64,000 nucleotides of DNA from Candidatus Equimonas faecalis. Its GTDB lineage: Bacteria; Bacteroidota; Bacteroidia; Bacteroidales; Bacteroidaceae. Shown in pieces: positions 23,474-51,888 of the stretch. Made by a program: the position numbers and the translations under genes. A model generated the notes under the pieces. That model was not told the origin of the DNA. It did no database searches and saw nothing but the letters and a program-made list of their open reading frames with translations. The stretch is from positions 1 through 64,000 of the forward strand of contig JAGHRT010000017.1 in assembly GCA_018066245.1 (NCBI GenBank), written 5' to 3'. The first letter of the stretch is position 1. The number at the start of each line of letters is the position of its first letter.

Positions 23474-24105
23474 AGCTTTGTTTTGTCGATATAGTCCACT
23501 TGTATGCCTGCACGGCGCAGGAGGTCGATGCCGTCGGTGAGGCGGTAGTGCTCGCCATAGACCACGCGCTTGATGCCGCACTGTATGATGAGTTTGGCGC
23601 ACTCTATGCAGGGCGAGGCCGTAACGTAGAGCGTGGCTCCGTCGGAATTGTTGCCTGAGCGGGCGATTTTGGTGATGGCGTTGGCTTCGGCGTGGAGTAC
23701 GTAGGGCTTTGTGAGGCCGTTTTCGTCCTCGCACACGTTTTCAAAGCCTGAGGGGGTGCCGTTGAAGCCGTCGGAGATGATCATTTTCTCCTTTACGATG
23801 AGCGCACCCACCTTTCGGCGCGTGCAATAGGAGTTTTCGGACCAGATGTCGGCCATGCGGAGGTAGCGCTCGTCGAACTTGCGCTCTTTGTCGGCGGCGC
23901 TCTTCTCCCCGCTCTTACTTAAAGGGAGAGGGCTGCCGGGGCCGTCGTTACTATCGGCGGAGTAGTTTTTTCTGTCGGCGGAGTAGTTCGCACTGTCGGT
24001 GGAGTAGTTTTTCCTGTCGGCGGAGTAGTTCGCACTCTCCTTGGAGGTGTTGCAACGCTCTGTGGGAGAGGGCGCTGCGGTGTTGGACTTATTTTCGTAT
24101 TCCAT
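23470..24105 (-). CDS. dCMP deaminase with a repeat-derived N-terminal extension
   Basis: Residues about 73-211 are a zinc-dependent deoxycytidylate deaminase (dCMP to dUMP for dTTP supply): FDERYLRMADIWSENSYC, HAEANAI (His138, Glu140) and PCIEC (Cys166, Cys169). Bacteroidales homologues, from memory, are near 145 residues, with only about ten residues before the FDERYLRM-like segment. Here residues about 10-72 come from intergenic repeat sequence: residues 25-52 repeat NYSADRK/NYSADS (four 21-bp units at 23951-24034) and the flanks come from CTCTCCC-type repeats. ATG 24105 overlaps the M3 peptidase stop; the next in-frame ATG (Met84) would cut the fold. The stop overlaps the S41 start. The catalytic residues are intact, so it is probably active. 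Confidence 0.85.
   Translation of the reverse strand: MEYENKSNTAAPSPTERCNTSKESANYSADRKNYSTDSANYSADRKNYSADSNDGPGSPLPLSKSGEKSAADKERKFDERYLRMADIWSENSYCTRRKVGALIVKEKMIISDGFNGTPSGFENVCEDENGLTKPYVLHAEANAITKIARSGNNSDGATLYVTASPCIECAKLIIQCGIKRVVYGEHYRLTDGIDLLRRAGIQVDYIDKTKL
23951..24034. repeat. Array 1: four 21-bp TCGGCGGAGTAG units inside the dCMP deaminase gene
   Basis: Units start at 23951, 23972, 23993 and 24014; each is 21 bp with core TCGGCGGAGTAG (one TCGGTGGAGTAG) and tail TTTTTTC or TTCGCAC. Since 21 bp is seven codons, the array is translated in frame on the minus strand as NYSADRK/NYS(A/T)DSA. Confidence 0.9.
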
Positions 24106-26125
24106 CGCGTTGGAGTAAGGCTTCGATAGAGGGTTTGCGACCACGGAAGGCCTCGTAGAGAGCCATCGGCTCACGGGTGTTGCCACGGGCGAGTATCTCG
24201 CGGCGGAAGCGGGCTGCGGTGTCTTTGTTGAAGATGCCCTCTTCCTTGAAGGCGGCGAAGGCATCGGCATCGAGCACTTCGGCCCACTTGTAGGAGTAGT
24301 AGCCTGCGGCATAGCCGCCGCTCATGATATGGCCGAACTGCACGCTGGTGCAAGCCTCGGGCGCGTGTTCCATCACGTCGGCTTCGGCGCAGGCCTCGGT
24401 TTCGAACTGCCGCAGGTCGCCCTGCAAGGGTGAGGTGAGGGAGTAGTAGGCCATGTCGAGCAGGCCGAAGCTCACCTGGCGCAGGCAGCTGTAGCCCACG
24501 TTGTAGTGGCGGGCGCGGTCCATGCGGTCGATGAGTTCTTGCGGCAGGGGCTCTCCCGTCTGGTAGTGGCGGGCAAAGGTGCGGAGGAACTCGGGTTCGA
24601 GGAGGTAGTTCTCCATGAATTGCGAGGGGAGCTCCACAAAGTCCCAATAGACGTTGGTTCCGCCCATGTTGCGGCGGCGCACGTTGGAGAACATGCCGTG
24701 GAGGGCGTGGCCGAACTCATGGAGCAGGGTGCCTACTTCGCCGAGGGTGAGCAGGGCGGGGGCATCGGGCGTGGGCTTCGTGAAGTTCATGACGATGCTC
24801 ACATGGGGCAGCCGGCGCTGTCCCTGGTCGTCGGTCCACTGGTCGCGGTAGGATGTCATCCATGCGCCTCCCTGCTTGCTTTCGCGGGGGAAGAAGTCGG
24901 CGTAGAGCAGGGCGAGGGGTGTGCCGTCGGCTTCAAGCACGTCGAAGGCTTGGACGTCGGGATGGTAGAGGGGGCACTCGGTGTTGGGGCGGAAGGTGAG
25001 GCCGTAGAGGCGGGTGGCCAGGCCGAACACGCCGTCGATGACTTGCTGCAAGGGCAGGTAGGGGCGGAACATCTCGCTGTCGAGGTTGTACTTCTCCAGT
25101 TGCAGCTTGTGGTTGTAGTAGCCGAAGTCCCAGGGCTTCAGCTCAAAGTCGTCGCCCTCCATCTTGCGTGCCTGCCGGCGTATGGCTTCTACGTCGGCGA
25201 GGGCGGCGGGCCGGTAGCTGCCTATGAGTTGGTGCAGCAGGTCGTACACGGCCTGTGTGCTGCCCGCCATCCGCCGCGACAGCACGTAGTCGGCGTAGCA
25301 GGGGTAGCCCAGCAGTTGGGCCGTTTCCTGCCTGAGGTTGATGAGCTGGCGGGCGGTTTCGGTGTTGTCGTAGGGGGAATGTTCGGTGCAGCGGAGTATG
25401 CTGGCGTAGTACATCTGCCGGCGCAGTTCGCGGTCGTGGGCGTAGGTCATGAAGGGGCCGTAGCTGGGGCTCTGGAGGGTGAACACCCATCCGTCCAGCC
25501 CGCGCTCCTGGGCGGTGGCGGCTGCCTGCTTGCGCAGGGTGTCGGGCAGGCCGCTGAGCTTGGACTCGTCGGTGATGTGCAGCTGGTAGTCGTTGGTGGC
25601 CTTGAGGTTGTTGTCGGAGAATTGCAGGCTGAGCTGGCTCATCTGCATGGAGATTTCGCGGAAGCGTGCCTTCTTGTCGTCGGGCAGGCAGGCTCCGCTG
25701 CGCTCGAAGCCCTCGAAGGTGCCGTCGGTCATGCGCAGGTCTTCTTCGCTCAGCTCGGGCAGTTGGCCGGCCTCGGCTTGCTCCTTCACCTGCCGCACGC
25801 GCTGGAAGAGGCGTGCGTTCATGGCGATGTTGTTGGAGTGTTCGGCGAGGAGGGGGGCCATTTCTTGCGACAGGGCCTGCAGTTCGTCGGAGGTGCAGGC
25901 CGACAGGAGGTTGTACATCGCCGTGGAGGCACGCTCCAGCATGGCTCCGCTTTCTTCGATGGCCAGTATGGTGTTGGCGAATGTGGGGGGAGCGGGATTG
26001 CCGGCTATGGCTTCTATCTCGGCTTCGGCCTCGCGTATGCCCTGGACTATGGCCTCGCGGATGTTGTCGGGAGTGATGCGGTCGAAGGGCGTGTATTTCA
26101 GTTCTTCTTTGAAGGGGTTTTGCAT
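24089..26125 (-). CDS. M3-family oligopeptidase
   Basis: A 678-residue zinc peptidase of the thimet oligopeptidase / oligopeptidase A / Dcp family. The HEFGH motif is at His469 within TLLHEFGHALHGMFSNV, and the third ligand region (FVELPSQFMENYL) follows about 25 residues on; the substrate-binding segment near SGGYAAGYYSYKWAEVLDADAF is intact. These enzymes degrade short peptides. No signal peptide is seen, so it probably acts in the cytoplasm. ATG 26125 (MQNPFKEELKYTPF) matches the family start; the frame is open a further 280 bases upstream through repeat DNA, which I treat as leader. The stop overlaps the dCMP deaminase start by 17 bp. Confidence 0.9.
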   Translation of the reverse strand: MQNPFKEELKYTPFDRITPDNIREAIVQGIREAEAEIEAIAGNPAPPTFANTILAIEESGAMLERASTAMYNLLSACTSDELQALSQEMAPLLAEHSNNIAMNARLFQRVRQVKEQAEAGQLPELSEEDLRMTDGTFEGFERSGACLPDDKKARFREISMQMSQLSLQFSDNNLKATNDYQLHITDESKLSGLPDTLRKQAAATAQERGLDGWVFTLQSPSYGPFMTYAHDRELRRQMYYASILRCTEHSPYDNTETARQLINLRQETAQLLGYPCYADYVLSRRMAGSTQAVYDLLHQLIGSYRPAALADVEAIRRQARKMEGDDFELKPWDFGYYNHKLQLEKYNLDSEMFRPYLPLQQVIDGVFGLATRLYGLTFRPNTECPLYHPDVQAFDVLEADGTPLALLYADFFPRESKQGGAWMTSYRDQWTDDQGQRRLPHVSIVMNFTKPTPDAPALLTLGEVGTLLHEFGHALHGMFSNVRRRNMGGTNVYWDFVELPSQFMENYLLEPEFLRTFARHYQTGEPLPQELIDRMDRARHYNVGYSCLRQVSFGLLDMAYYSLTSPLQGDLRQFETEACAEADVMEHAPEACTSVQFGHIMSGGYAAGYYSYKWAEVLDADAFAAFKEEGIFNKDTAARFRREILARGNTREPMALYEAFRGRKPSIEALLQRDGIRK

Positions 26126-26194
26126 GGCTTGGTCGTAAGGGCTGTGTTCCCTCCCGCCCTTGAGGGGAGGAGGCTCTTGGAGAGTGGCGTTTCT

Positions 26195-26257
26195 TATCGG
26201 CGGACTAATTTTTCCTATCGGCGGAGTAGGGGAAACTGTCGGCGGGACGGTTTTTCC
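26195..26257. repeat. Array 2: three 21-bp TCGGCGGA-type units upstream of the M3 peptidase gene
   Basis: Units at 26195, 26216 and 26237 with cores TATCGGCGGACTA, TATCGGCGGAGTA and TGTCGGCGGGACG. Purine/pyrimidine palindromes (CCCTCCC/GGGGAGG at 26147-26173; CTCCC/GGGGAG at 26277-26293) flank the array on both sides. It occupies the leader between smpB and the peptidase gene. Confidence 0.85.
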
Positions 26258-26310
26258 TCTCCTTAGGGGTAGTGTTCTCCCTCTTTGGGGGAGTTTGCGC
26301 GGGGGTGTGG

Positions 26311-29852: not shown

Positions 29853-29968
29853 GCGAAAACGGCACTTTTGAGGATGCGGACGCGGCTTTGGGCGTGCATA
29901 TCTATCCTTTGGATAGGATTTGCTAGCTTTACGCACGTTTTTTGCCTTCTATAAGAGAGTGGGATTTG

Positions 29969-30078
29969 CCGTATAGGGCAAGGAAAACTAGTGTATAGGG
30001 CAGTTAAAACTACTGTATAGGGTAGTTAAAACTAGTGTATAGAGTAGTCGGAACTACTGTATAGGGTAAGAAAACGCA
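29969..30078. repeat. Array 3: five 22-bp TGTATAGGGTAG-type units between pfp and the TonB receptor gene
   Basis: Units start at 29969, 29991, 30013, 30035 and 30057. The core is (C/T)GTATAGGG(C/T)AG and the tail GTTAAAACTA. Some units form AACTAC...GTAGTT inverted repeats. It ends directly at the terminator hairpin 30079-30109. Confidence 0.9.
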
Positions 30079-33667: not shown

Positions 33668-34228
33668 TTATTCTTCTGCTTGGGCAGGGGCTTCCTCTTC
33701 AGCGGGTGCTTCAACTTCCTCTGCGGGAGCGGGCTCGGCTGCGGGTGCTTCTTCGGCGGGAGCTTCCTCTACGGGAGCTTCTGCGCCTTCTGCAATGACG
33801 GTGAAGGGGAGTTCGGCGGTTACGCCCTTGTAGATCTGTACGGTGGCTATGTAGTTGCCCACGCTCTTCACGTCCTTGACGGCAATGGTCCTGCGATCCA
33901 ACTCAATGCCGCGCTTCTGGAGCTCTTCGGCGAGGTGCTGGTTGTTCACGCTGCCGTAGATGGTGCCGGTAGCGCTTACCTTGGCAGAAATGACAATGTC
34001 CTTGATGGCCTCGATGCGCTGCTGGAGCGTCTGAGCCTCCTGCTGGAGCTTCTCAATCTTCTTGGCCTGCTGCTTGAGCGTCTCGGCGAGTTGCTTGCGG
34101 GCGCTCTGGGAGGCAATGACGGCTTTTCCCGAGGGAATGAGGTAGTTGCGGCCATAGCCGTCCTTAACGGTAACGATGTCGTTCTTGTAGCCAAGTCCGA
34201 CTACGTTTTCTTTCAGTATTATTTCCAT
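33668..34228 (-). CDS. rplI: Ribosomal protein bL9 with Ala/Glu/Pro-rich tail
   Basis: A 186-residue bL9. The N-terminal rRNA-binding domain is typical (MEIILKENVVGLGYKNDIV, VKDGYGRNYLIPSGKA), the long connecting helix (about 45-80) and the C-terminal domain follow up to about 148, which is the usual full length. About 38 further residues consist of E, A and P (EEAPAEEAPAAEPAPAEEV and similar), a disordered acidic tail not needed for the bL9 fold. ATG 34228 is set by the family start; the frame is open further upstream into the bS18 gene. Last gene of the bS6-bS18-bL9 operon. Confidence 0.95.
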   Translation of the reverse strand: MEIILKENVVGLGYKNDIVTVKDGYGRNYLIPSGKAVIASQSARKQLAETLKQQAKKIEKLQQEAQTLQQRIEAIKDIVISAKVSATGTIYGSVNNQHLAEELQKRGIELDRRTIAVKDVKSVGNYIATVQIYKGVTAELPFTVIAEGAEAPVEEAPAEEAPAAEPAPAEEVEAPAEEEAPAQAEE

Positions 34229-34248
34229 AATGCTTGTTCCTCCTTTAG

Positions 34249-34512
34249 TTATTTCATCAAATCGGTTACGAAGGGTAGCAGGGCGAGGTGGCGGGCACGC
34301 TTCACGGCCTGTGCCACGCGGCGCTGGTACTTCAGGGATGTGCCTGTGATGCGGCGGGGCAGGATTTTGCCCTGCTCGTTGAGGAACTTCTTCAGAAATT
34401 CGGGATCTTTGTAGTCGATGTACTTGATACCGCTCTTCTTGAAGCGGCAATACTTTTTCTTCTTAACGTCGATTGCGGGGGCGTTGAGGTAACGAATTTC
34501 GCTTTGTGCCAT
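34249..34512 (-). CDS. rpsR: Ribosomal protein bS18
   Basis: An 87-residue small-subunit protein that binds with bS6 on the platform. Family features seen: [42 protein letters not shown] and [27 protein letters not shown] (quoted in parts by position 12-30, 32-54 and 55-81). It starts 3 bp after the bS6 stop and ends 20 bp before bL9. Confidence 0.95.
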
Positions 34513-34515
34513 GAT

Positions 34516-34854: not shown

Positions 34855-34927
34855 CATTGTTTTGATGTTTTGGTTAATTGGTTGATTGATTTTATCTGCT
34901 TGCGGCACAATGTGCGCAAAAGCGTTG

Positions 34928-34958: not shown

Positions 34959-35090
34959 GCTTTCCTGCTGTTTTTTCGCTCAAAAGCTTTGGGGACGCTT
35001 TGTTTTGCTTTGTTGGGCCTGCGTTTCGGCGGCTAAAGCGTGCCTGACCTGCAAAAGAGGGATTTCGCTCTGCGGTATCGGTAAGGCCTG

Positions 35091-35222
35091 TCGTACAGAG
35101 TAGCGAAAACTAGTGTATGGAGTAGTGCGAACTAGTGTATAGAGTAGGAAAAATTAGTGTATGGAGTAGTGCAAACTAGTGTATAGAGTAGGAAAAACTA
35201 GTGTATGGAGTAGTGAAACGCG
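35091..35222. repeat. Array 4: six 22-bp TGTATAGAGTAG-type units upstream of the bS6 operon
   Basis: Units start at 35091, 35113, 35135, 35157, 35179 and 35201. Units alternate between GTGTATGGAGTAGTG and GTGTATAGAGTAGGA cores, with tails ending AAACTA. It ends 20 bp before the stop of the next gene (35243). Confidence 0.92.
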
Positions 35223-35242
35223 TAGGCTATGCCGCTTCTTTC

Positions 35243-35842: not shown

Positions 35843-35854
35843 GGCTGAGGGGTG

Positions 35855-36490: not shown

Positions 36491-36495
36491 CAGGC

Positions 36496-38916: not shown

Positions 38917-38990
38917 GGGTGATGGGGTTTAGGTGCCCCTTTTGCGCTTCGTCGGGGTGGATTCGCGGACAGGGGGGCGGGTGTGAACTG

Positions 38991-39077
38991 TCGTATAAAG
39001 GAGTGAAAACTGTCGTATAGGATAGGTGAAACCGTCGTATAGGGTAGGTGAAACTGTCGGCGGGATAGTTTTGCCGG
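38991..39077. repeat. Array 5: three 22-bp and one 21-bp unit ending at the endonuclease stop codon
   Basis: Units at 38991, 39013 and 39035 (core TCGTATAGGGTAGGTG, 22 bp) and 39057 (TCGGCGGGATAG, 21 bp). Both core types therefore occur in one array in phase. The last base (39077) directly precedes the stop codon (39078-39080) of the endonuclease gene, and the following TCAGCGGACGAG still resembles a unit core. Confidence 0.9.
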
Positions 39078-40598: not shown

Positions 40599-40642
40599 GT
40601 GTGTATGGGTTTGTCGTTGCATGTTTATGAGAGGGTTTCCCG

Positions 40643-40730
40643 TAGTCTATAGGGTAGTGTTTCCTGTCGTATAGGACAGTTTTCCGTAGTCTATAGGACA
40701 GTTTCTCCTGTCGTATAGGGTAGTTTCTTT
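40643..40730. repeat. Array 6: four 22-bp units upstream of the endonuclease gene
   Basis: Units at 40643, 40665, 40687 and 40709 alternate TAGTCTATAGGGTAG and TGTCGTATAGGACAG cores with TTTCC-type tails. It lies between the endonuclease start (40598) and the EnvC-like stop (40783). Confidence 0.9.
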
Positions 40731-40782
40731 TCTTTTGCGGACAGGGCGCAGGGGTCTTGGGCGGGTGCGGCCTCCTCCTGCC

Positions 40783-42126: not shown

Positions 42127-42148
42127 GGAAGGGTGGGGGAGTGTGGGT

Positions 42149-42781
42149 TCACAGGGCGAGAAGGGCCTTAAACAGGGCGTTGGCATCGCGTTTCTTATAC
42201 TTCGTCTCGTCTATCTCGGTGCGCGTGGCCCATTGCCTTTCGTTGCTGATTTCCGTGAGCGACATATTGAAGCCTGCTTCCTTGGAGGCTGTGCGGAAGC
42301 GTACCTGATGGTTGGAGGGAATCTTGTGGCGGTTCACCTTGCCGAAGGCGGAGTAGGTCCAGCTCAACTGGCTGTCGGTGCGCCCCGCCATGTTGTCGCC
42401 CCAAAACAGGGCCTGGATTTCCCTGAAGCCCATCTGGCGCTCGCTGAGGGCGGCGATGTCGGCATAGGGGGCGCGGACGTATTGCTTGTTCACGCGGTCG
42501 ATGAGCAGCACCGTGTCGGGCGTGAACTCCAGCGTGCCGACATTCATGCCGAGCAGTACGAGGTTGAGCTGCACCACGTCGTCGCGCAGCATTCTCAGCC
42601 TGCCGGAGCAACTGAGGTCTTCGCCGATGAGTTCCACGCCTGCCCGAGCCGACACGGCTTCGGGCAGCGACACGACGTCGGCGGGGCTTGTGCCGCCTGT
42701 CGTGGGGGAAGTGGCGTTTTGGCTTCCGTGGCAACCGGCCATCAGCAGGACGGCGAGGAGGAGGTATAGGGTGTGCTTCAT
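42149..42781 (-). CDS. DUF4292 lipoprotein
   Basis: A 210-residue lipoprotein: the signal ends in LLMAGC with Cys17 as the lipidated residue. The rest matches the DUF4292 pattern of Bacteroidales (SCSGRLRMLRDDVVQLNLVL, then LLGMNVGTLEFTPDTVLLID, then VNKQYVRAPYADIAAL), resembling LolA-like half-barrels that bind lipids. The function is not established. It is the middle gene of the TPR / DUF4292 / EnvC group; start spacing to EnvC is 22 bp. The repeat array 42805-42913 lies just upstream. Confidence 0.8.
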   Translation of the reverse strand: MKHTLYLLLAVLLMAGCHGSQNATSPTTGGTSPADVVSLPEAVSARAGVELIGEDLSCSGRLRMLRDDVVQLNLVLLGMNVGTLEFTPDTVLLIDRVNKQYVRAPYADIAALSERQMGFREIQALFWGDNMAGRTDSQLSWTYSAFGKVNRHKIPSNHQVRFRTASKEAGFNMSLTEISNERQWATRTEIDETKYKKRDANALFKALLAL

Positions 42782-42804
42782 GGTCGGGTAGGGATGGTTG
42801 TTCG

Positions 42805-42913
42805 TGGTCTATAGGGTGGCTGTTCTTAGTCCGCCGATAGTTTTTCCTGTCGTATAGGGCAGTGCGGCTTAGTCTATAGGATAATTTCTCTTGGTCTTTA
42901 GGGCTGGAGTTTC
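42805..42913. repeat. Array 7: mixed 22- and 21-bp units between the TPR and DUF4292 genes
   Basis: Units at 42805 (22), 42827 (21, core TAGTCCGCCGATAG), 42848 (22), 42870 (22) and 42892 (22). The 21-bp unit has its GC core inverted (TCCGCCGA rather than TCGGCGGA) inside the same flanks. It separates two genes usually close together. Confidence 0.88.
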
Positions 42914-42968
42914 TCTCCCTTGTGCGGTTTTCTTTCTCCTATGAATGAGTTTGTTGAAGTCCTTCACT

Positions 42969-44402
42969 TCATTTCTTTCTTGAACGGGGCGGTTTGCCCT
43001 TTCCCGCCCCCTCTCGGATGAGGCGCTGGTGTTCGGAGAGTTCCTCGTCGGGGACGTCGCTCAACTCCACGGCCCGGTTGATGTAGCGCAGGGCTTCGCG
43101 GTCGCGCCCCATGCAATGCAGAATCCAGGCGTAGGTGTCGAGAAACGTAATGCTTTCGGGCTCTTCCTCCAAGGTGCGGCGGCTCAGTTCCTCGGCACGC
43201 TGGAGGTTGCGCCCCAGCTGCGAGAGCTGGTAGGCGTAGTTGTTGAGCATCATCACGTCGGTGGAGTCCATCTGGATGGCCGTCTCGTAGGCTTCCACCG
43301 AGGCTTCGGTGTTGTTCAGGTTGGTGTAGATGTCGCCGCATAGGCCGTAGAGGCGCGGAGCCATGGGGTCGTCGGACGGGAGCTGCACCGTGTTGATGCC
43401 CCTTTGGCAGGCATCGAGGGCTTTCAGCGTGTCGCCGAGGCTGAAGTGGCCGAGGGCTTCGTAGAAGTAGTAGCTCAGGAAGTCGGGCTCAAAGGCTTCG
43501 CCTTCGGCGCAAAGCTTCACGATTTGCTGCGACTGCTCCCGTTCCTGCTCCTCCGTCCAGAGGCTGACAGTGTCCACAATGACCGTGTCGGTTTCCAGCG
43601 CGAGGGTGTCGTCCATGACTGCGGTGTCGGCCACTGCCTGTTCGGAAAGCCTGATGGTCGCTATGAGGGCTTGGCGCAGGGCCTTCACCTTGTCGTAGTA
43701 GCGGGGCGTGCCTTTCAGTTTCTCCTTAATGCGTTCGGGCGTGGAGGGGTCCGGCATAGCCTTCACAAGGAGAGAGTCGTAGGTGGCCTCAGCCAGTTCG
43801 CGCCGCCCCATGCAGTCGTAAATCTCAAACCGCTCCCACGCCGTCATGGCGTCGGGCTCGTCCAACTGCTCCATACGCTCCACCGTGGCCAAGGCTTGCG
43901 GGTATTGCGCCTGTATCTTGTAGAGTTGCACAAGCAGGCCCAGATCGCCATAGCCCGGGCGCGGCTCGCGGCAAATCCTTTCGTAGAGGCGCGTAGCCCC
44001 TGCGTAGTCGCCACGGCTCAGCAGGTGGTCGGCCAGCCTCTCGCGGATGGTGGCGTTGGCCGTATCGGTGCGGTAGGCCCGGCGCAGGAGCGAGTCGCCC
44101 TCTGCCACCCAGGCGCTGTCGATAAGCGCCGATGCTGCCAGCTTGAGGTTGGCCATGTCGTAGAGGGCCGCCGTGTGGTCGGGCGCAATGCGGAGGCATT
44201 CGTTCAGAAGCTCAAAGGCGGCGTCGGGATGCCCCGCCATGCGCTGGCATACTGCCGACATGTACAGCGCACTCAGCACCGTGTCGGTCCTTTCCGTCCG
44301 GCTCTTGCGCTCCTGGGCGGACTGCCGCAGGGCAGGCCTGCCGGCCACAGCCGTCAGCGCTACGAGGGCCAGCAGTATGTAGGCGACTTTTCTGAGCATC
44401 AT
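42969..44402 (-). CDS. TPR-repeat protein with N-terminal signal or anchor
   Basis: A 477-residue protein with a hydrophobic N-terminus (about 4-21) and TPR motifs at about 42-110 (SALYMSAVCQRMAGHPDAAF, LNECLRIAPDHTAALYDMA), 125-210 and 325-460 (LYGLCGDIYTNLNNTEASVE, ALRYINRAVEL). Between them, about 235-300 is acidic and less regular. In Bacteroidales a TPR gene commonly precedes the DUF4292 and EnvC-like genes, which suggests a shared envelope role. The start overlaps the dGTPase stop as ATGA. Confidence 0.8.
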   Translation of the reverse strand: MMLRKVAYILLALVALTAVAGRPALRQSAQERKSRTERTDTVLSALYMSAVCQRMAGHPDAAFELLNECLRIAPDHTAALYDMANLKLAASALIDSAWVAEGDSLLRRAYRTDTANATIRERLADHLLSRGDYAGATRLYERICREPRPGYGDLGLLVQLYKIQAQYPQALATVERMEQLDEPDAMTAWERFEIYDCMGRRELAEATYDSLLVKAMPDPSTPERIKEKLKGTPRYYDKVKALRQALIATIRLSEQAVADTAVMDDTLALETDTVIVDTVSLWTEEQEREQSQQIVKLCAEGEAFEPDFLSYYFYEALGHFSLGDTLKALDACQRGINTVQLPSDDPMAPRLYGLCGDIYTNLNNTEASVEAYETAIQMDSTDVMMLNNYAYQLSQLGRNLQRAEELSRRTLEEEPESITFLDTYAWILHCMGRDREALRYINRAVELSDVPDEELSEHQRLIREGAGKGKPPRSRKK

Positions 44403-45733
44403 ACCATCGGGAGCGAATGACCGTTGATTTTGCGGTAAAGGTCAAGGGCGTAAACGTCCGTCATCCCGCTGAGGTAATCCAGCACCGCCATGACCCGTGT
44501 GCTGAGGTCGTCGGCTCGCAGCTCGTACTGGCTGGAGGCTTGGTTCAGAAGCAGGCGCGAGTAAGCCTTGTCGGGGTGCGTGACGGCCTCGGTTACCTGT
44601 TCGAGGAGCGTATATATAATATGGTAGCCCGCAAGGTCGATGTCGGTAACCTCTTTGCAGTTGTAGATGCGGCTGACGGCCACTTTCTGGCAACGGGCGT
44701 AGGCTTGCTGCAAAGGCTCGGGCAGGTGGTCGATGAGCGCTCCTTGGAACTGTCCGCTCAGTATGAGGGATTCGTTGTCGATAAAGAGCTTCACGCACGC
44801 CGACTCCAGGGCTCCGATGACGCATGAGCGGTAATAGACCATCTGGTCGTTGAGGTCGGTGCAGCCGGGATAGGCATTTCTCATTTGTTCCTGCACGTCG
44901 GCGGGGAAGAAGTCGAGGAGCAGTTGGCTGGCTTCGTCGTAGGAGAGCAGGCGGAGCTTGAATGCGTCCTCGATGTCCATAATCTCGTAGCAAATATCGT
45001 CGGCCGCCTCCACAAGATACACCAGCGGGTGCCGCGCAAAGCGCACGCCGTCGGCATTGCACTGTATTTCCGTCAGCCCCAGTTCACGCGCTATGCGGAG
45101 GTAGTCCTCACGCTCGGCGGTGAAGAAGCCGAACTTGCTTTTCGTGCCGCACAGGTTGCTGCTGTAGGGGTACTTCACGATGCTGGCCAGCGTGCTGTAG
45201 GTGAGCACGAAGCCGCCTTTCCTGCGTCCTGCAAACTGGTGGGTGAGCAGGCGGAAGGTGTTGGCGTTGCCGTCGAAGTTCACTATGTCGGCCCAGACCG
45301 CCGGGGGGAGCATCCCCTTCAGGATTTGTCCCTTGCCCTCGCTGAAGTAGCTGCGTATGGCCCGCTCTCCGCTGTGGCCGAAGGGGGGGTTGCCCATGTC
45401 GTGGGCGAGGCAGGCCGCACTGACGATGGCCCCGATGCTCTGGAAGTCGGCTTCGGGAGCCTGATCGGGGTGGAGGCGCAGAAGTTCGCTGCCCACGTCG
45501 TTGCCAAGGGAGCGCCCCACGCTGCTCACCTCAAGGGAGTGCGTCAGGCGGTTATGGACGAACACGCTGCCGGGCAGGGGAAAAACCTGCGTCTTGTTTT
45601 GCATTCGGCGGAAGGCCGAACTGAAAATCAGGCGGTCGTATTCCCGTTGGAACTCGGGGCGGCGTTCTGTAGGGCCGGCCTTCACGCCTTCTTTGCCAAG
45701 GCGCTTCGACGATATGAGTTGCTGCCAATTCAT
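44399..45733 (-). CDS. dGTPase-like deoxynucleoside triphosphohydrolase
   Basis: A 444-residue HD-domain enzyme that removes triphosphate from dNTPs. Metal ligands are in RLTHSLEVS (His65) and CLAHDMGNPPFGHSGE (His111, Asp112), with a later Asp in VEAADDICYEIMDIEDA. The N-terminus QREYDRLIFSSAFRRMQNKTQVF (in two parts, about 29-51) is typical of Dgt. ATG 45733 matches the family start and lies just downstream of a -7 box; the frame is open about 100 bases further upstream. The gene stands between the dUTPase (divergent) and the TPR gene. The preferred dNTP is unknown. Confidence 0.9.
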   Translation of the reverse strand: MNWQQLISSKRLGKEGVKAGPTERRPEFQREYDRLIFSSAFRRMQNKTQVFPLPGSVFVHNRLTHSLEVSSVGRSLGNDVGSELLRLHPDQAPEADFQSIGAIVSAACLAHDMGNPPFGHSGERAIRSYFSEGKGQILKGMLPPAVWADIVNFDGNANTFRLLTHQFAGRRKGGFVLTYSTLASIVKYPYSSNLCGTKSKFGFFTAEREDYLRIARELGLTEIQCNADGVRFARHPLVYLVEAADDICYEIMDIEDAFKLRLLSYDEASQLLLDFFPADVQEQMRNAYPGCTDLNDQMVYYRSCVIGALESACVKLFIDNESLILSGQFQGALIDHLPEPLQQAYARCQKVAVSRIYNCKEVTDIDLAGYHIIYTLLEQVTEAVTHPDKAYSRLLLNQASSQYELRADDLSTRVMAVLDYLSGMTDVYALDLYRKINGHSLPMV

Positions 45734-45756
45734 TTGCGTAATCCGGTTTGAGCCTA

Positions 45757-45764
45757 CAAAGTTA
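45757..45764 (-). promoter_or_regulatory. Probable -7 box (TAACTTTG) of the dGTPase gene
   Basis: On the minus strand TAACTTTG lies 23 bp upstream of the ATG at 45733, giving a short leader. No good TTTG was seen at the -33 position. Confidence 0.4.
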
Positions 45765-45927
45765 AGCATTTTCTCGCACTTATTCCCCTTTTTCGAAGAA
45801 AAACTGCGCCGAGCCTCGTTTTTTCGCCTGTTCAAGCCTTGCTTCCTCCTGCTTTTCGCTTTTCCATCTGCCCGATGCTCATCCCTCTCCGGCGGCGAGG
45901 AGGGGCGCCCGGCTGGATGGTTTTCAC

Positions 45928-46015
45928 TAGTGTATAGGCTAGTTTTTTCTAGAGTATAGGCTAGTTTTTTCTAGAGTATAGACTAGTTTTTTCTAGTGTA
46001 TAGAGTAGGGCGTGT
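45928..46015. repeat. Array 8: four 22-bp units between the divergent dGTPase and dUTPase genes
   Basis: Units at 45928, 45950, 45972 and 45994. The core is TAG(T/A)GTATAGGCTAG with a TTTTTTC tail; CTAG-TGTATAGG-CTAG is an exact 4-bp inverted repeat, extended to AAAACTAG/CTAGTTTT in part. The rest of the 45765-46190 gap holds a GAAAGGGAGG-type segment and no recognisable gene. Confidence 0.92.
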
Positions 46016-46190
46016 GGTCGGTAAGGGCTTGAAATCAGGGGTATAGACCTCTGCCGAGCAGCCCTCTGCCAAACGCTCCGCTCCTGCCTTCTCCCGCCAC
46101 GAAAGGGAGGCTGCGCAAAAAAATCGGTGCGCCGGCATAATTTTTAAGCTTTTTTAGAGTTATAGAATGTGTAAAGCCCCTTTCACGACC

Positions 46191-46625
46191 ATGACCATTG
46201 AAGTAATCAATCGTTCACACCACGCTCTTCCGGCCTATGCCACGCCGCTCAGTGCCGGCCTTGACCTGCGGGCCAACCTTGAAGCTCCCGTTACGCTCCA
46301 GCCCATGGAGCGCCGCCTCATTCCCACAGGACTTTTCATCGCCCTGCCCGCCGGCTATGAGGCGCAGGTGCGGCCCCGTTCCGGCCTGGCCCTGAAACAT
46401 GGCCTTACGGTGCTCAACGCCCCGGGCACGATAGATGCCGACTACCGTGGCGAAGTGGGCGTTGTCCTTATCAACCAGTCGGAGCAGCCCTTTACCATTG
46501 AGGACGGCGAGCGGGTGGCGCAACTCGTCGTGGCACGCCACGAACAGGTGGAATGGCGCCCCGTGGAACAACTCGCCGACACCGAGCGCGGTGCGGGGGG
46601 CTTCGGCCACTCTGGAAGGGAGTAG
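46191..46625 (+). CDS. dut: dUTP diphosphatase
   Basis: A 144-residue trimeric dUTPase that hydrolyses dUTP to dUMP, keeping uracil out of DNA. All five family motifs are present: AGLDLRA (22-28), [11 protein letters not shown] (61-71), [15 protein letters not shown] (76-90, with the catalytic Asp), ERVAQLV (107-113) and [10 protein letters not shown] (133-142). ATG 46191 (MTIEVINRS) matches the family start; an upstream ATG at 46167 would add eight unmatched residues. Next to a dNTP triphosphohydrolase on the other strand. Confidence 0.95.
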
Positions 46626-46712
46626 ATGAGATAAGTGTAGCACGAAGAGTAATTTGACCCTCCCTCCGATTCGTCTGTCTGCCCATTAGTTCCTACTCAC
46701 ATTCCCTCGCTG

Positions 46713-48146
46713 ATGACTGCGCCTACGAAGAAATCCGTTTTCCGTGCCACGTCGCTCATGGGCGGCGTGCAGGTGCTCACCATCCTCATCAACATTGTCC
46801 GCAACAAGCTGGCGGCTGTGCTTATCGGAGCGGCGGGCATGGGCCTCGCCGACCTGTATAGCCGCACGGCCGACTTCCTTTCGCAAGCCACCAGCTTCGG
46901 CATAGGCATCTCCTCGGTACGCCGCCTTGCCGCTATGCACGAAGCCGGCAACCAGCGGGAATGTGCGCATTACGTCAGGCTCATCCGCACGCTCACCCTT
47001 TGGCTGGCCGCCCTCGGTGCAGTAGTGTGCCTTGTGGCCGCCCCCCTCCTCAGCCGCTGGAGCGTGGGCGGAAGCAGCATTACCCCGGGTTTCTGGAAAC
47101 TGGCCGCAATGGTGGCTTTCATTACGCTGGCTGCCGGCGAAACGGCCATACTCAAGGCTACCCAGCAACTTCGCAAAATTGCCGTAAACACCACACTCAG
47201 CGCCGTAGCCACGCTCGCTTACGCCGCTGCATTCTACACGGCTTTCGGTATGCGCGGTATCATTCCCGTGCTCATCCTGTCGTCTGCCACGGTGTGGCTG
47301 CTCACGCTCCGCAGCACACTCCAAAACTTCCCGCTGGCCCTGCTCCGTCCCCGCAGGGATTTCTTCCGCCGCAGCCGGAGCGTACTGGCCATGGGGCTGG
47401 CCCTTGTGAGTGCCGGCATCCTGGGCAGCGGCAGCGAAATGGTCATCCGTTCTTTCGTTATTTCCCACGGTTCCCTCGCCGACGCAGGTCTCTATGCCGC
47501 AGGCCTGACGCTCACAGTGAGCTACGCACGCATCATTTTCTCAGCGATGGATGCCGATTACTACCCGCGACTTTCCGCTGCCATTACTTCGCCCACGTTT
47601 CTCTCGGCGACCGTCAATCGGCAAATAGACGTGCTGGTGCTTATGATGGCTCCGTTCCTCATTCTCTTTGCCCTCGTGCTGCCTGTCGCCGTGCGGGTGC
47701 TCTACGCCCCTGAATTTATGGCGGTCGAACCTATGGTACTTCTCGCTCTCGGCTACATGCTGTTCAAGTCCGTATATTCCCCCATGGCCTACCTCCCCCT
47801 GGCGGCCGGCCACTCGCGCGTATATCTTATAATGGAGTTGAGCTACGACGTGGTGTTCTGCCTGCTCGTCATTCTGGGCTACACCTTCTTCGGCCTGCCG
47901 GGCACGGGCGTGGCCCTCTCGGTGGCCAACGCCCTCGACCTCCTGGCCCTGTGGACCTTCTACCACCACCGCTATAAATACAGCCTTGAACGCGCCACGC
48001 TCCTCCGCGCCGCCTTTCAAGCCGTCCTCTTGGCGGCCACGCTTGCCCTCTGCCTGTCTGCGCCCTCCCTCGTGATGCGCTGCACCGTGGGCGGCGGGCT
48101 TTTCGCCCTCTCGCTGGCCTATTCCGTGTATTCCTATAAAAGATGA
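46713..48146 (+). CDS. Wzx-type polysaccharide flippase
   Basis: A 477-residue membrane protein with about twelve to fourteen hydrophobic segments and the start of O-antigen/oligosaccharide flippases (SLMGGVQVLTILINIVRNKL, then AAGMGLADLYSRTADFLSQA). Such proteins move lipid-linked glycan units across the inner membrane. It overlaps the following glycosyltransferase gene by 4 bp (ATGA), so the two are translated together, pointing to one small glycan pathway; no other polymer gene is adjacent. Start at ATG 46713, 87 bp after dut. Confidence 0.85.
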   Translation: MTAPTKKSVFRATSLMGGVQVLTILINIVRNKLAAVLIGAAGMGLADLYSRTADFLSQATSFGIGISSVRRLAAMHEAGNQRECAHYVRLIRTLTLWLAALGAVVCLVAAPLLSRWSVGGSSITPGFWKLAAMVAFITLAAGETAILKATQQLRKIAVNTTLSAVATLAYAAAFYTAFGMRGIIPVLILSSATVWLLTLRSTLQNFPLALLRPRRDFFRRSRSVLAMGLALVSAGILGSGSEMVIRSFVISHGSLADAGLYAAGLTLTVSYARIIFSAMDADYYPRLSAAITSPTFLSATVNRQIDVLVLMMAPFLILFALVLPVAVRVLYAPEFMAVEPMVLLALGYMLFKSVYSPMAYLPLAAGHSRVYLIMELSYDVVFCLLVILGYTFFGLPGTGVALSVANALDLLALWTFYHHRYKYSLERATLLRAAFQAVLLAATLALCLSAPSLVMRCTVGGGLFALSLAYSVYSYKR

Positions 48147-49093
48147 AATTCTCCATACTTGTAGCCGCCTACAACGCCCAGAAGTATCTTCCACGCTGCC
48201 TCGACTCGCTCTTCCAGCAGACAGAGCAGAGCCTGCAGGTTATAGTGATTGACGACTGTTCTACGGACGATTCCCTTCAGGTGGAACAAAGCTATACCAA
48301 AGTACGCGACAACTGCGTCCTCGTGCTGCATACGCCGCACAACAGCGGGCAGGCTGAAGCCCGCAACTTGGGTCTGAAATACGCCGTGGGCGAGCTTACG
48401 CTCATGGTCGATGCCGATGACTGGCTGGCCCCCGATTGCCTGGAGCAAATCTGGCGGACTTACACCTCCGCCCCCGACATTGACGCCGTGCCCATGCGTC
48501 TGCGCCTCGTGGCCGGCGACGGGATGGAGCAGGAGTGGAACGACCCGTCGCAGCTGCCCGTCATCATGACCGGCACGCAGGCCTGTGCCTACACGCTCAG
48601 CCGCAAGCTCCACGGGCTCTACGCCGTGCGCACCTCACTCCACCAGGAGTTCCCCTTCGACACCTCCTCGCGCCTCTATTCCGACGACAACACCACCTAT
48701 ATCCACTACCTCCACTCCCGCAAGGTGGCCCGCTCCGAGGGCATCTACTACTACCGCCAGCACGCGGCCAGCGCCACGCACCAGTACGGCCTCTCGCGCC
48801 TCATGTTCCTCCGGGCCAACATGTCGCTCCGCCTCCAGTTGGAGCAGTACGGCTGCGACGACGACATACTCCGCCTCTGCGAGGAGCATTGCTGGAACAA
48901 CTATCTCGGCATCTACCGCGAAATGCAGGAACTGCGCCGCTCCGACTTCCTCACCGAGGAGCAGGAGGACGAAATCCGCACCACCTTGGACGAAGCCTAC
49001 CATGCCCTGCGCCTCGACCGCCTCGGCAAAAAGCGGCTGCCCTTTGCCCTTTTCCAACTGGAGCAGAAGGCCATCATGACGGTGAAGCGCTGA
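48143..49093 (+). CDS. Family 2 glycosyltransferase
   Basis: A 316-residue GT-A fold transferase: FSILVAAYNAQKYLPRCLDS at the N-terminus, VIDDCSTDDS (about 35-44), NSGQAEARNLGL and VDADDW with the DxD-type metal/nucleotide site (90-93). The C-terminal 110 residues are helical and family-variable. It transfers a sugar from a nucleotide donor to an acceptor that cannot be read from sequence. Coupled by ATGA overlap to the flippase gene. Confidence 0.88.
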   Translation: MKFSILVAAYNAQKYLPRCLDSLFQQTEQSLQVIVIDDCSTDDSLQVEQSYTKVRDNCVLVLHTPHNSGQAEARNLGLKYAVGELTLMVDADDWLAPDCLEQIWRTYTSAPDIDAVPMRLRLVAGDGMEQEWNDPSQLPVIMTGTQACAYTLSRKLHGLYAVRTSLHQEFPFDTSSRLYSDDNTTYIHYLHSRKVARSEGIYYYRQHAASATHQYGLSRLMFLRANMSLRLQLEQYGCDDDILRLCEEHCWNNYLGIYREMQELRRSDFLTEEQEDEIRTTLDEAYHALRLDRLGKKRLPFALFQLEQKAIMTVKR

Positions 49094-49205
49094 CGGCCCC
49101 TCTGCCACCTGCGGGCCACGGCCTATGCAGGAGCCTTTCCTGCCGTATAAAGCCCCTTCCCCCATCCTCCCTTAAAGCGAGAGTGCCGGCGAGGCGGCTT
49201 TTTTA

Positions 49206-49291
49206 TAGTCCGCCGACAGGGGAAATTAGTCCGCCGACAGTTTTTCCTCCCTTATAGGACAGTTTTTCCTTCCGTATAGTAGAGTTGCAAG
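49206..49291. repeat. Array 9: two 21-bp and two 22-bp units between convergent genes
   Basis: Units at 49206 and 49227 (TAGTCCGCCGACAG, 21 bp), 49248 and 49270 (TTATAGGACAG and CGTATAGTAGAG, 22 bp). An isolated degenerate unit (TGCCGTATAAAG) is at 49141-49162, followed by a CTCCCTTAAAG-type segment. It lies between the GT2 stop and the C10 protease stop. Confidence 0.85.
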
Positions 49292-49304
49292 CGCCCGGCA
49301 TACA

Positions 49305-49336
49305 AAGAAAGCCTCCCTTTGCGGGGAGGCTTTCTT
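49305..49336. terminator. Bidirectional terminator between GT2 and C10 protease genes
   Basis: AAGAAAGCCTCCC (49305-49317) pairs with GGGAGGCTTTCTT (49324-49336) across a short TTTGCG-type loop, with A/T-rich flanks on both sides. Confidence 0.85.
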
Positions 49337-49365
49337 ATTAGTGGGCGCGTGTGCCTCGGCAGGGC

Positions 49366-51600
49366 CTAACGCAACACTTTCTTGCTGCCGACGATGTGGA
49401 GCGAAGAGGGCGTGGCGAGGGGCCGGCCTTGAAGGTCGAATGTCTGGGGATTGCCCTTGTCCGGCGTAGCGGGGGCGGCGGCAATGCCTTCGGGATCGAC
49501 GCGCAGCAGGTAGGCCGTGCGGTCGTTTATAAGCCAGAGGGTGTGGTCGGCGTGGGAGGTTTTGTTGCAGAACACGGTGGCGAGGTTGGCAGCCTTGTCG
49601 CAGCCCAAGTAGCCCGCTTCGCAGCGCACGCGGCAGATGCGCGAGGTGGCGCGGAAGTCGGCATCGCCCGTCGTAACGGGCAGGGAGGTGGGCTCAATGT
49701 AGAGGGTGAGCGGCGTGTCGGAGGTGGCGGAGCCGTTGCCCGTCTTGAAGCCCGTGCTCTTGGCGCTCACGATGCCCGTACCCTCGGCCACGCTCATCTG
49801 CCAGCCGTCGGCGTGGGGCAGGATTTGCAGTTGGGTGGGGTCGCCCGTGGCGGAAAGGGCGGAGCTCACCTTGACTTGCATGGGGAAGGCCTTGCCGTCT
49901 TCCCAGAGGCTCATGGTGTAGTAGTGCTCAGGATTGAAGAGCTCCGTCTGGGTGTTCCAGTCGCCCTGCTCCGTGCTTAGGCGGGTGGGGAGTATCATCC
50001 AGCAGGCGTGGCCGAGAGAGTCGGCCGGTGTGGCCGTTCCCCAGCCTGCTATGCCCTGGGAGCCGGGTTCGTTGCAGTCCATCACGGTGCCGTCCTGCTT
50101 CAGCCAGAAGTACTGGGGAGCCTTGTCGGGGAACATCTGCCCCACGGTGTAGGCGGCTGTGGGCTGGGCGGTTGAGCCGGCGTTGCCCCCGTTGGTGAGT
50201 GCGCCGAAGTAGTCGCCCGTGCCTGTCTGTATGTAGTATGTGCCGGCCTTCTTGTCCTTGGCGATGAAGCGCACCAGCTGGGGGGCTCCCACTTCGGTGG
50301 GCTCGCCGCCAATGACGAAGCGCGAGTTCTGCACGGTCTTGCCCAAGCCTGAGGAGTGGGCGGCGGAGTAGCGACCGGCGTTGTAGAGGACGTACCAAGT
50401 GCCTTCCTCCAATTTCGTAACGGGGTGGAAGATGTCGGCTGCGGCATAGAGCCCGCGCAATTCTTCAAGCGGGGCGTCGTCGCTGAGGCGGACTTGGTCG
50501 TCGGGGTCTGGGGCGAAGAAGTTGGCGGTCTGTGCTTGCGAGAAGCCGTTCATATTGGCTATGGTGTAGTAGCCGTTGCCTCCGCCGCTCCATCCCATGT
50601 TCAGGTGGAGGCGGCCCTGGCTGTCGTAGCCGTCGGCCACAAAGGCATGGTTGCCTTGTCCGTTGTTGCCGCTGATGAGTATGGGGTGGCCTGCGTCCAA
50701 CTCGTCGTAGATGCGTTGCTCGTAGGCGCTGAGGTCGTAGCCGGAGAAGTCGGAGTGGATGCCCTCGAAGAAGGCGTTCACGCCCTCGGTGCAGGAGGAT
50801 GTGTAGGTGCCGGAGTTGCCGGGAGCGTAGTACATCTCGGAGGCCACGCCGCAGGCATACATCAGACGGGCCACGGCCATCTGGCTTTTGTAGGGCGAGG
50901 AGCTGCTGTAAGTGGCTCGGAGGTTGGCCCAATCCATGGGCAAGGCGCTCAGGTTGGCGGTAACGTAGGCCATGTGGTAGGTGCCGTCGAGATAGAAGTA
51001 GCGCTTCTGTCCACGGGCGCGGGTGGGGTAGCCCGTCTTCTGGTTCAGGGTGTAGAGAATCTGCGCCAGGGCCGTAGCCACGCAGCCGGAAGCCGAGCGC
51101 CTGTCCTCACCGTTCTGATAGAGGGTGGGGCACATCAGGTTGTAGGGCTCACCCTGGTCCCAGCGGCACTTCATGAGTTCCTTCACGCCTGAGGGATTGT
51201 AGGTGGCGGAGGCTCCGATGAACTGGGGGGCGGTGTGGGTGTCGGCACAGTGCTGGAGGTAGGCATCGAGGGCGGAGATGTAGCCTTGGAAATTGGCGTT
51301 GGCATTGGCTTCGGCGAAGGAGCCTTCGGCATAGCCTATGACGGCGGGCAGGCGGTCGTCGTGGCTGACGAGGGCAAAGCCGCTGGCGTTGCTTCCCACC
51401 ACGCTCATCTGCCTCATCCGGCTGAGGGTGGTCAGCGTCTGGGGCTGTGCGGTGTGCTTCTCTACGGATGGGATGCGGCGTGCCTGGCCGAGCACTTGCC
51501 GTGCTGCTCCAATCATTTCGTTTTCGCTGCGCTGGCCGGCTGCGGCAGGCAGGACGAGGGCGGCGGCCACCGCCCACAGGCTAAGTTTTCTGAGCGTCAT
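49366..51600 (-). CDS. Secreted C10 (streptopain-like) cysteine protease with T9SS-like tail
   Basis: A 744-residue protein with a signal peptide (about 1-22), a propeptide of the Spi/SpeB type (about 25-130) and a C10 peptidase domain (about 135-375) with the catalytic Cys173 in SASGCVATALAQ and His318 in NGQGNHAFVADGY, followed by LHLNMGWSGGGNGYY. A long beta-rich region with ricin-like segments follows (about 400-700). The end is QTFDLQGRPLATPS and IVGSKKVLR, the shared tail. C10 proteases are secreted and activated by loss of the propeptide. It has its own promoter at 51629-51659, divergent from the M60 protease gene. Confidence 0.9.
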   Translation of the reverse strand: MTLRKLSLWAVAAALVLPAAAGQRSENEMIGAARQVLGQARRIPSVEKHTAQPQTLTTLSRMRQMSVVGSNASGFALVSHDDRLPAVIGYAEGSFAEANANANFQGYISALDAYLQHCADTHTAPQFIGASATYNPSGVKELMKCRWDQGEPYNLMCPTLYQNGEDRRSASGCVATALAQILYTLNQKTGYPTRARGQKRYFYLDGTYHMAYVTANLSALPMDWANLRATYSSSSPYKSQMAVARLMYACGVASEMYYAPGNSGTYTSSCTEGVNAFFEGIHSDFSGYDLSAYEQRIYDELDAGHPILISGNNGQGNHAFVADGYDSQGRLHLNMGWSGGGNGYYTIANMNGFSQAQTANFFAPDPDDQVRLSDDAPLEELRGLYAAADIFHPVTKLEEGTWYVLYNAGRYSAAHSSGLGKTVQNSRFVIGGEPTEVGAPQLVRFIAKDKKAGTYYIQTGTGDYFGALTNGGNAGSTAQPTAAYTVGQMFPDKAPQYFWLKQDGTVMDCNEPGSQGIAGWGTATPADSLGHACWMILPTRLSTEQGDWNTQTELFNPEHYYTMSLWEDGKAFPMQVKVSSALSATGDPTQLQILPHADGWQMSVAEGTGIVSAKSTGFKTGNGSATSDTPLTLYIEPTSLPVTTGDADFRATSRICRVRCEAGYLGCDKAANLATVFCNKTSHADHTLWLINDRTAYLLRVDPEGIAAAPATPDKGNPQTFDLQGRPLATPSSLHIVGSKKVLR

Positions 51601-51628
51601 GTTTTCGTGCGATATACAGTTGCGTCTG

Positions 51629-51659
51629 CGAAATTACGGAAAAACGGGCATTTGAGCAA
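51629..51659 (-). promoter_or_regulatory. Promoter of the C10 protease gene
   Basis: On the minus strand TTG (51657-51659), 20 bp, TAATTTCG (51629-51636; one mismatch). The ATG at 51600 is 29 bp downstream of the -7 box. Confidence 0.5.
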
Positions 51660-51778
51660 GAGAAATGCCGTTTTTCTGCGATTCCGGGGTGTGGCAGTGG
51701 CGGACGGGTGTCTTTTCCAAGCCCTGCGCTCCGTGCAATCCTCCGTCCGGGAGAAAGAGGCCGAGGGGACGTTTTTCC

Positions 51779-51888
51779 TAGTGTATGGACTAGTTTTTTC
51801 TAGTGTATAGAATAGTTTTTTCTAGTGTATAGAATAGTTTTTTCTGGTGTATAGAGTAGTTTTTCCTGGTGTATGGAGTAGTTCGCCG
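51779..51888. repeat. Array 10: five 22-bp units between the divergent C10 and M60 protease genes
   Basis: Units at 51779, 51801, 51823, 51845 and 51867 with core T(A/G)GTGTATAGAATAG or TGTATGGACTAG and TTTTTTC tails. Units 2 and 3 are identical. The array lies between, and does not overlap, the two divergent promoters. Confidence 0.92.

What the first reader, a model, noticed from the sequence alone, without database searches (positions are those of the whole stretch)
23951..51888. Family of 21/22-bp tandem arrays, about 44 units in ten arrays within 28 kb
Arrays at 23951, 26195, 29969, 35091, 38991, 40643, 42805, 45928, 49206 and 51779 contain 3-6 units each. Units keep a strict period: 22 bp for the TGTATAGGGTAG core and 21 bp for the TCGGCGGAGTAG core. 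Both types mix in phase within arrays 5, 7 and 9. There are no spacers, so this is not CRISPR. The period is two DNA helical turns, putting every core on the same face, as expected for binding sites of an oligomeric protein. Many units hold a short inverted repeat (CTAG-TGTATAGG-CTAG). I know of no described element of this kind. Alternative: non-functional repeats that spread by slippage or conversion.
Basis: seen in the sequence. Interest (0 to 1): 0.85.

Follow-up and report, generated by a model that had tools for sequence, protein, structure and literature searches.

The report
Fixed-spacing palindrome arrays between genes
Many gaps between genes in this Alloprevotella-like bacterium carry short rows of mirror-image DNA elements whose spacing did not vary in the stretches examined although their letters change freely, and sampled relatives carry rows of other letters at about the same two-helix-turn spacing, which hints at a rule about DNA geometry rather than sequence.

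Summary
All ten arrays exist (43 units counted) and belong to a genome-wide family in an Alloprevotella-like genome. In 618 kb examined, two unit types occur: 16 bp (GTATAG core) and 15 bp (GGCGG core). Neighbouring units up to 30 bp apart are separated by exactly 6 bp in 272 of 286 pairs; the other 14 gaps fit one unscored unit. The 272 linkers show 110 sequences.

The sequence is private: none of 57 congeners has the 22-bp unit at density (0-5 hits against 78), and the nearest lacks arrays at 5 of 5 comparable sites. The period is shared: 98 intergenic arrays of period 20-23 bp from sampled members of the order fall into 62 sequence clusters; samples from outside the order gave 0 of 7. Three species of the genus share a half-site grammar, GACAG-6-CTGTC, with different cores.

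Best reading: helically phased, symmetric DNA-protein sites under geometric constraint, whose sequences turn over fast. A selfish copying process with fixed unit length is the main rival. No cognate protein was identified.

The parts
23951..24028 (+). Array 1: four 21-bp G-type units, read in frame in the 5' end of the dCMP deaminase-like ORF
26194..26250 (+). Array 2: three 21-bp G-type units between smpB and M3 peptidase genes
29966..30069 (+). Array 3: five 22-bp T-type units
35088..35213 (+). Array 4: six 22-bp T-type units
38988..39068 (+). Array 5: three T-type units then a G-type unit, in register
40642..40723 (+). Array 6: four T-type units
42804..42884 (+). Array 7: T, inverted G (42826-42840), T, T units in register
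45927..46008 (+). Array 8: four T-type units, divergent intergenic region
49205..49284 (.). Array 9: two inverted G-type units then two T-type units, convergent region
51778..51881 (+). Array 10: five T-type units, divergent intergenic region
23470..24105 (-). dCMP deaminase-like ORF (name recalled from motifs, no family scan run on it) carrying array 1 as an N-terminal extension absent in the sister species

Best explanation
The arrays are one species' version of a class of intergenic palindromic minisatellites, found in sampled members of several families of the order, whose geometry rather than sequence is conserved. Each unit here is an inverted-repeat element of 15-16 bp plus a 6-bp A/T-rich linker, so half-sites alternate in orientation every 10-11 bp and the unit spans two turns of DNA. 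Shown: invariant linker length with free linker sequence in this genome, nearly the same period in 62 sequence clusters, a half-site grammar shared by three species of the genus with different cores, and no shared positions with the nearest relative at the sites compared. Inferred: the spacing is held because a dimeric or oligomeric DNA-binding protein occupies successive units on one face of the helix (an architectural or roadblock role at gene ends and between genes), its recognition resting on symmetry, a short half-site and a bendable A/T linker; arrays grow, shrink and move by copying of whole units, and new unit sequences replace old ones as recognition drifts.
For: Linker of exactly 6 bp in 272 of 286 neighbouring pairs up to 30 bp apart, the other 14 being 27 or 28 bp (one missed unit); 110 distinct linkers. 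Core TAT.G 99% constant while the arms vary (with the selection caveat). Intergenic arrays of period 20-23 bp: G000 35 of 54, other genus samples 21 of 32, 71 named loci 35 of 59, other order samples 7 of 14, against 0 of 7 outside the order and 0 of 1 in E. coli; of the 71 named loci 11 prove to be same-genus genomes (6 of 9 arrays) and the other 60 give 29 of 50. These 98 arrays form 62 clusters, modal period 21 in 22, 22 in 33, 23 in 7. L114: 15 successive steps of 21 bp through different palindromes, centres staying within 3 bp of register. GACAG-6-CTGTC and CTGTC-5-GACAG peaks in G000, G004 and G043, no peak in G056 and G016. A/T runs of 4 or more: 185 against 79 (sd 14) after permuting columns. 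T-T neighbours are in genes in 0 of 170 pairs; arrays lie nearer the upstream stop than the next start (medians 36 and 129 bp, n=35; 15 of 21 in a second sample).
Against: No protein found. Positions are not conserved: 0 of 5 sites in the nearest relative. Several unrelated unit families in one genome (nine clusters among 35 arrays in G000) do not fit one sequence-specific protein. Arm covariation in G000 is weak (z=2.0), and inverted symmetry is also raised in arrays of other periods (9 of 16 and 8 of 16 with z above 2, against 34 of 50). A purely helical rule would allow 11- or 33-bp steps, and none is seen. With lower thresholds one odd 17-bp step appears, and one 70-bp T-T distance was seen. 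Most samples outside G000 have no such array (8 of 24, 31 of 71 and 6 of 23 samples have one).
Confidence: 0.45

Rival explanations
1. Selfish palindromic minisatellites with no host function: whole units are copied by slippage, template switching at hairpins or conversion, and the copying machinery fixes unit length at about two turns.
For: Private sequence (57 congeners with 0-5 hits), no positional conservation at 5 of 5 sites, several unrelated families per genome, linkers on either strand relative to the core (T-rich 37, A-rich 22, other 23 of 82; a possible fold-back copying signature), an array-bearing block inserted in frame in a gene, no 9-mer shared by 5 or more of 122 array flanks except the unit's own.
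Against: I know of no copying process that sets 21-22 bp across unrelated sequences (recalled); no decayed arrays with odd gaps up to 30 bp at the main threshold; core better conserved than linker; half-site grammar shared between distant congeners.
Confidence: 0.33
2. RNA-level elements: hairpin rows in transcripts acting as terminators, attenuators or 3' end stabilisers.
For: Near-stop location; the GTATAG strand is antisense to flanking co-directional genes in 25 of 27 arrays (one tie) and 10 of 14 in a second sample (seven ties, p=0.18); some units look like hairpin plus T-run.
Against: Arrays are as frequent in divergent regions (6 of 24) as in co-directional (33 of 185) and convergent ones (5 of 21). 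In the three outer arm pairs the mismatches are G-T on the GTATAG strand (about 80 against 13 A-C), hence A-C on the usual sense strand, and relatives show no asymmetry, 36 to 32. The terminator scan of 34000-52500 flags one array unit, on the strand antisense to the neighbouring genes. RNA hairpins need no fixed period. The mismatch bias fits the general C over G excess of intergenic sense strands.
Confidence: 0.12
3. Ordinary operators of one species-specific transcription factor.
For: Conserved asymmetric core and many intergenic sites.
Against: Placed away from starts, in arrays of 2-6, also in convergent regions, and unrelated families share the period.
Confidence: 0.06
4. REP/BIME elements moved by a REP-associated Y1 transposase.
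For: Short palindromes, intergenic; PF01797 matches in 28 of 58 genomes including three in G000.
Against: No match in G004 and G043, which carry arrays (both assemblies are incomplete, 86 and 90%); the one G000 copy inspected is flanked by its own different repeats.
Confidence: 0.03

Closest known systems
BrickBuilt MITE and the 22/23/41-nt tandem repeats of Porphyromonas gingivalis (PMC4596501, passages seen)
   Same: Same order, spacerless tandem units of 22-23 nt, intergenic, many loci per genome
   Different: BrickBuilt has leader and tail with inverted-repeat ends around one unit sequence; here no shared flanks were found, units are themselves inverted repeats and many sequences share one period
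REP / BIME palindromes (PMC3733652, passages seen)
   Same: Short palindromes, repeat families, sometimes reiterated in tandem
   Different: Fixed 6-bp linker and no consistent Y1 transposase partner; a GTAG or CGTC tag was not tested for
Plasmid iterons and phased operator arrays (recalled)
   Same: Direct repeats about two turns apart, same helical face
   Different: Here dispersed between chromosomal genes; protein unknown
Phased A-tract DNA in bacterial nucleoids (PMC3940949, passages seen)
   Same: A/T runs in helical phase, proposed link to nucleoid proteins
   Different: Here combined with palindromes in discrete arrays

Membership tests
CRISPR | Repeats separated by unique spacers of similar length | tested here: not met
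   6-bp linkers only; 286 of 286 neighbouring pairs in register
REP/BIME with RAYT | Associated Y1 (REP-associated) transposase | tested here: not met
   No PF01797 match in G004 and G043 (incomplete assemblies); different repeats flank the one G000 copy inspected
REP/BIME with RAYT | Imperfect palindrome of 20-40 bp | tested here: inconclusive
   Units are 15-16 bp inverted repeats in tandem
REP/BIME with RAYT | GTAG or CGTC tag at one end | not tested
   -
BrickBuilt-type MITE | Leader and tail with inverted-repeat ends around the array | tested here: not met
   No 9-mer in 5 or more of 122 flanks except the unit's own
BrickBuilt-type MITE | Spacerless tandem units of 22-23 nt | tested here: met
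   Period 22 (and 21) without spacers
Intrinsic terminator | Hairpin plus U-run at gene 3' ends, not expected in divergent regions | tested here: not met
   6 of 24 divergent regions carry arrays
Phased protein-binding array | Fixed helical spacing with tolerant sequence | tested here: met
Phased protein-binding array | A protein that binds the array | not testable with these tools
   no binding data

The most novel reading that the evidence does not exclude
Genomes of this order carry a chromatin-like code in which geometry is the signal: rows of almost any palindromic element, held at two helical turns by a fixed linker, form platforms for an unknown architectural protein family whose sequence preference drifts so fast that near relatives share no sites, as satellite DNA does in eukaryotes.
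Probability: 0.25. Interest if true: 0.9.

Novelty: new variant of a known kind. Interest (0 to 1): 0.72.

Why it matters
Bacterial tandem repeats are usually recognised by sequence. Here sequence is free and length is not, in sampled members of several families of a bacterial order common in animal guts and mouths (habitat recalled). That gives a direct test of whether bacterial chromosomes carry structure-coded, rapidly evolving platforms, and a clean system for asking how palindromic repeats arise and spread.

Tried and rejected
Y1 transposase as mover: rejected. Shared flanks or a MITE body: none found. Rfam at E up to 1 over 23500-52500: one match, at 43930-44000 and outside the arrays. 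Plasmid relatives of array 4: none (the phage collection was not searched). Exact unit in viral contigs: 0 stretches for the T-type, 3 for a 17-base G-type string, not read further. Rho-site idea (C over G on the sense strand): rejected because array-free intergenic DNA shows the excess more strongly. Arm covariation as proof of hairpins: weak, z=2.0; an earlier unfiltered count (z about 4.5) included chance core pairs. Sequence-independent palindrome spacing peaks near 10-11, 21-22, 32-33 and 42-44 bp but cannot separate the two dyads of one unit, so it is not used. A first clustering by shared 9-mers chained nearly everything (113 of 119 in one cluster) and was replaced by a stricter one. 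Literature searches listed no paper that I recognised as describing such arrays; most subscription journals are not held.

Rows dropped: eight named loci that repeat genomes already sampled, the low-complexity locus L168 (8 arrays, 6 of them at 20-23 bp), and L058, L063, L066 (replaced by longer samples of the same species) were left out; one search kept L168. Before that cut one search had one genic 23-bp array. The group called 'named other genera' is mislabelled: at least 11 of its 71 loci are same-genus genomes and more may be. The 'order' group holds one genome of the same family (G104). Gene calls come from my own simple caller, not a published one.
Full report
Observation. The ten arrays are present at the stated places. 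I count 43 units. They are of two kinds: a 16-bp T-type, consensus YTRNYGTATRGRNYRG (from the column counts), and a 15-bp G-type such as CTGTCGGCGGAGTAG. Score matrices for both were run on 618 kb of the genome: the 64-kb window, 400 kb of contiguous stretches along contigs that had hits, and 154 kb chosen around further hits. They give 298 T and 141 G units against 34 and 34 in the reversed sequence. Neighbouring units with a gap of 30 bp or less are separated by 6 bp in 272 of 286 pairs and by 27 or 28 bp in the other 14, the length of one unscored unit with two linkers. The 272 linkers comprise 110 sequences, commonest GAAAAA on one strand or the other (81), 71% A+T. Exceptions seen elsewhere: one 17-bp step at lower thresholds and one 70-bp T-T distance. 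So sequence varies and length does not. The 173 T-type units of the first 464 kb would scale to about a thousand genome-wide; that is an extrapolation, biased upward because the contigs were known to have hits.

Organism. Five genomes that the tool puts in the same genus have contig lengths equal to records titled Alloprevotella (G006, G018, G019, G041, G043); other same-genus genomes match records titled Prevotellamassilia, Prevotella or Equimonas (with titles). I therefore write Alloprevotella-like.

Where the arrays lie. In the 464-kb sample arrays of period 20-23 or 42-44 bp occupy 33 of 185 co-directional, 6 of 24 divergent and 5 of 21 convergent gaps of at least 40 bp. In co-directional gaps they lie nearer the upstream stop (median 36 bp) than the next start (129 bp; n=35); in the second sample 15 of 21 are nearer the stop. 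T-T neighbours are in genes in 0 of 170 pairs, G-G in 14 of 53, mixed in 5 of 63: 21 bp keeps frame, 22 bp does not. Array 1 is such a case: compared with G032, a block of roughly 200 bp holding the array sits just after the start of the dCMP deaminase-like gene, in frame. T-type orientation tends to follow gene direction: the GTATAG strand is antisense in 25 of 27 co-directional arrays with one tie, and in 10 of 14 with seven ties in the second sample, which was picked around near-palindromic hits. The second result alone is not significant (p=0.18).

Not conserved in position or sequence. Of 58 genomes in the genus only the window's own has the unit at density (78 hits; the 57 others 0 to 5, 18 of them with at least one). 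Sites 1, 2, 5, 6 and 7 of the window can be compared with G032 (SmpB 84% identical, the highest) and none carries an array there; sites 3 and 4 fall between contigs and 8-10 lay outside the query. The G032 stretches have intergenic arrays of their own, lags 21, 21, 22, 43, 24 and 32.

Conserved period. The reversed control pattern unexpectedly hit 70 times in G004, which led to other palindromic repeats there. A sequence-blind scan for self-similarity at lags of 12-60 bp shows in intergenic DNA: G000 35 of 54 arrays at 20-23 bp plus 7 at 40-46; 24 other same-genus samples 21 of 32 plus 5; 71 named loci 35 of 59 plus 4; 23 other samples of the order 7 of 14 plus 5; 20 samples of other orders and classes of the phylum 0 of 7; 100 kb of E. 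coli 0 of 1. Eleven of the 71 named loci are same-genus genomes (6 of 9 plus 3); the other 60 give 29 of 50 plus 1. Samples with at least one such array: 4 of 4, 8 of 24, 31 of 71, 6 of 23, 0 of 20, 0 of 2. The outgroup counts are small. Within genes no array of 20, 22 or 23 bp occurs in any group; 21-bp ones number 8 in G000 and 2 in other genus samples. The 98 arrays form 62 sequence clusters with modal periods 21 (22 clusters), 22 (33) and 23 (7), the largest holding 30 arrays. One genome can hold several: G056 has GTTTG-type, CTCACGA-type and TTTCACCGTGGTGAAA-type arrays; G016 has TGGCA, CTGCA and CATGCGCATG types. In L114 (titled Bacteroidales bacterium SUG1025, a same-genus genome) 15 successive 21-bp steps run through TGTCTGCGCAGACA, TTATCACGGAGATAA, GTTACAAACTTTGTAAC and others; the best palindrome centres move from offset 6.5 to 9.5 over the 15 rows, and 8 of 15 rows pair at 5 or 6 of 6 positions. 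The lag scan needs ungapped periodicity, so arrays with indels would be missed in relatives; the G000 linker count does not have that limit.

Grammar. In G000, G004 and G043 the half-sites GACAG/CTGTC (or GATAG/CTATC) stand 6 bp apart in one orientation (21, 41 and 19 cases; adjacent gap sizes 0 to 2) and 5 bp, in G000 also 6 bp, in the other (14 and 8; 28; 17); G056 and G016 show no peak. The G004 stretches were chosen by a pattern that contains the 6-bp gap and the G043 stretch contains known hits, so the 5-bp peaks are the more independent evidence. Half-sites thus alternate every 10-11 bp.

Structure evidence. A/T runs of four or more are 185 in about 399 units against 79 (sd 14) after permuting unit columns; linkers are more A/T-rich than stems in 38 of 58 palindromic arrays. 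Inverted symmetry exceeds permuted columns (z above 2) in 34 of 50 relatives' arrays, but also in 9 of 16 and 8 of 16 arrays of shorter and longer period, so symmetry is not special to this period. Covariation of the arms in G000 is weak (411 paired of 695, expected 392.7, sd 8.9).

Mechanism. DNA rather than RNA is favoured: divergent gaps carry arrays, and the strand asymmetry of mismatches is against hairpins in the usual sense strand of G000 and absent in relatives (36 to 32). The mismatch bias agrees with a general excess of C over G on intergenic sense strands (105 of 124 array-free gaps). I therefore commit to phased, symmetric DNA-protein platforms under geometric constraint, with copying of whole units as the way arrays grow and move; the protein is inferred, not found. 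The selfish alternative explains turnover and privacy better, and explains a fixed period across unrelated sequences worse.

Known relatives. The closest printed case of which I saw passages is BrickBuilt, a 23-nt spacerless array inside a MITE of P. gingivalis, whose paper also cites 41-, 23- and 22-nt repeats in strain W83 (PMC4596501). REP elements (PMC3733652, passages) share palindromy. Passages of PMC5771137 added nothing on such arrays. Eight searches listed no paper that I recognised as describing a fixed-period class; for most listed papers I saw only titles and abstract openings.

Noticed in passing
L216 1862-2096 (G000:C49): Y1 transposase gene flanked by a separate 125-bp tandem repeat with GTCTTCCAGACG inverted repeats, possibly the true REP-like family of this genome.
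   Followed up: partly
L288 3069-3213; L290 2982-3125: Repeat units fused to another repeated element around GGTTGCCGCAC..GCGGCTCG.
   Followed up: no
L240-L244 (G127): A genome of another family of the order has 22-bp arrays, several with ACC...GGT ends and changing palindromic centres (AGTACT, TATATA and others).
   Followed up: partly
L260-L279 (G004), L217-L223 (G043): Congeners less similar in SmpB share the GACAG-6-CTGTC grammar with the window genome while the nearer G056 does not; loss, convergence or transfer is open.
   Followed up: partly
L257, L258, L259: Three viral contigs contain a 17-base G-type string; not read.
   Followed up: no
window 1-23900 and 52000-64000: Only 3-mismatch hits to the unit patterns in these 36 kb, so arrays are unevenly spread.
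   Followed up: no
window 59437-59493 and 63186-63369: Unrelated tandem repeats of 8/15 bp and 84 bp.
   Followed up: no
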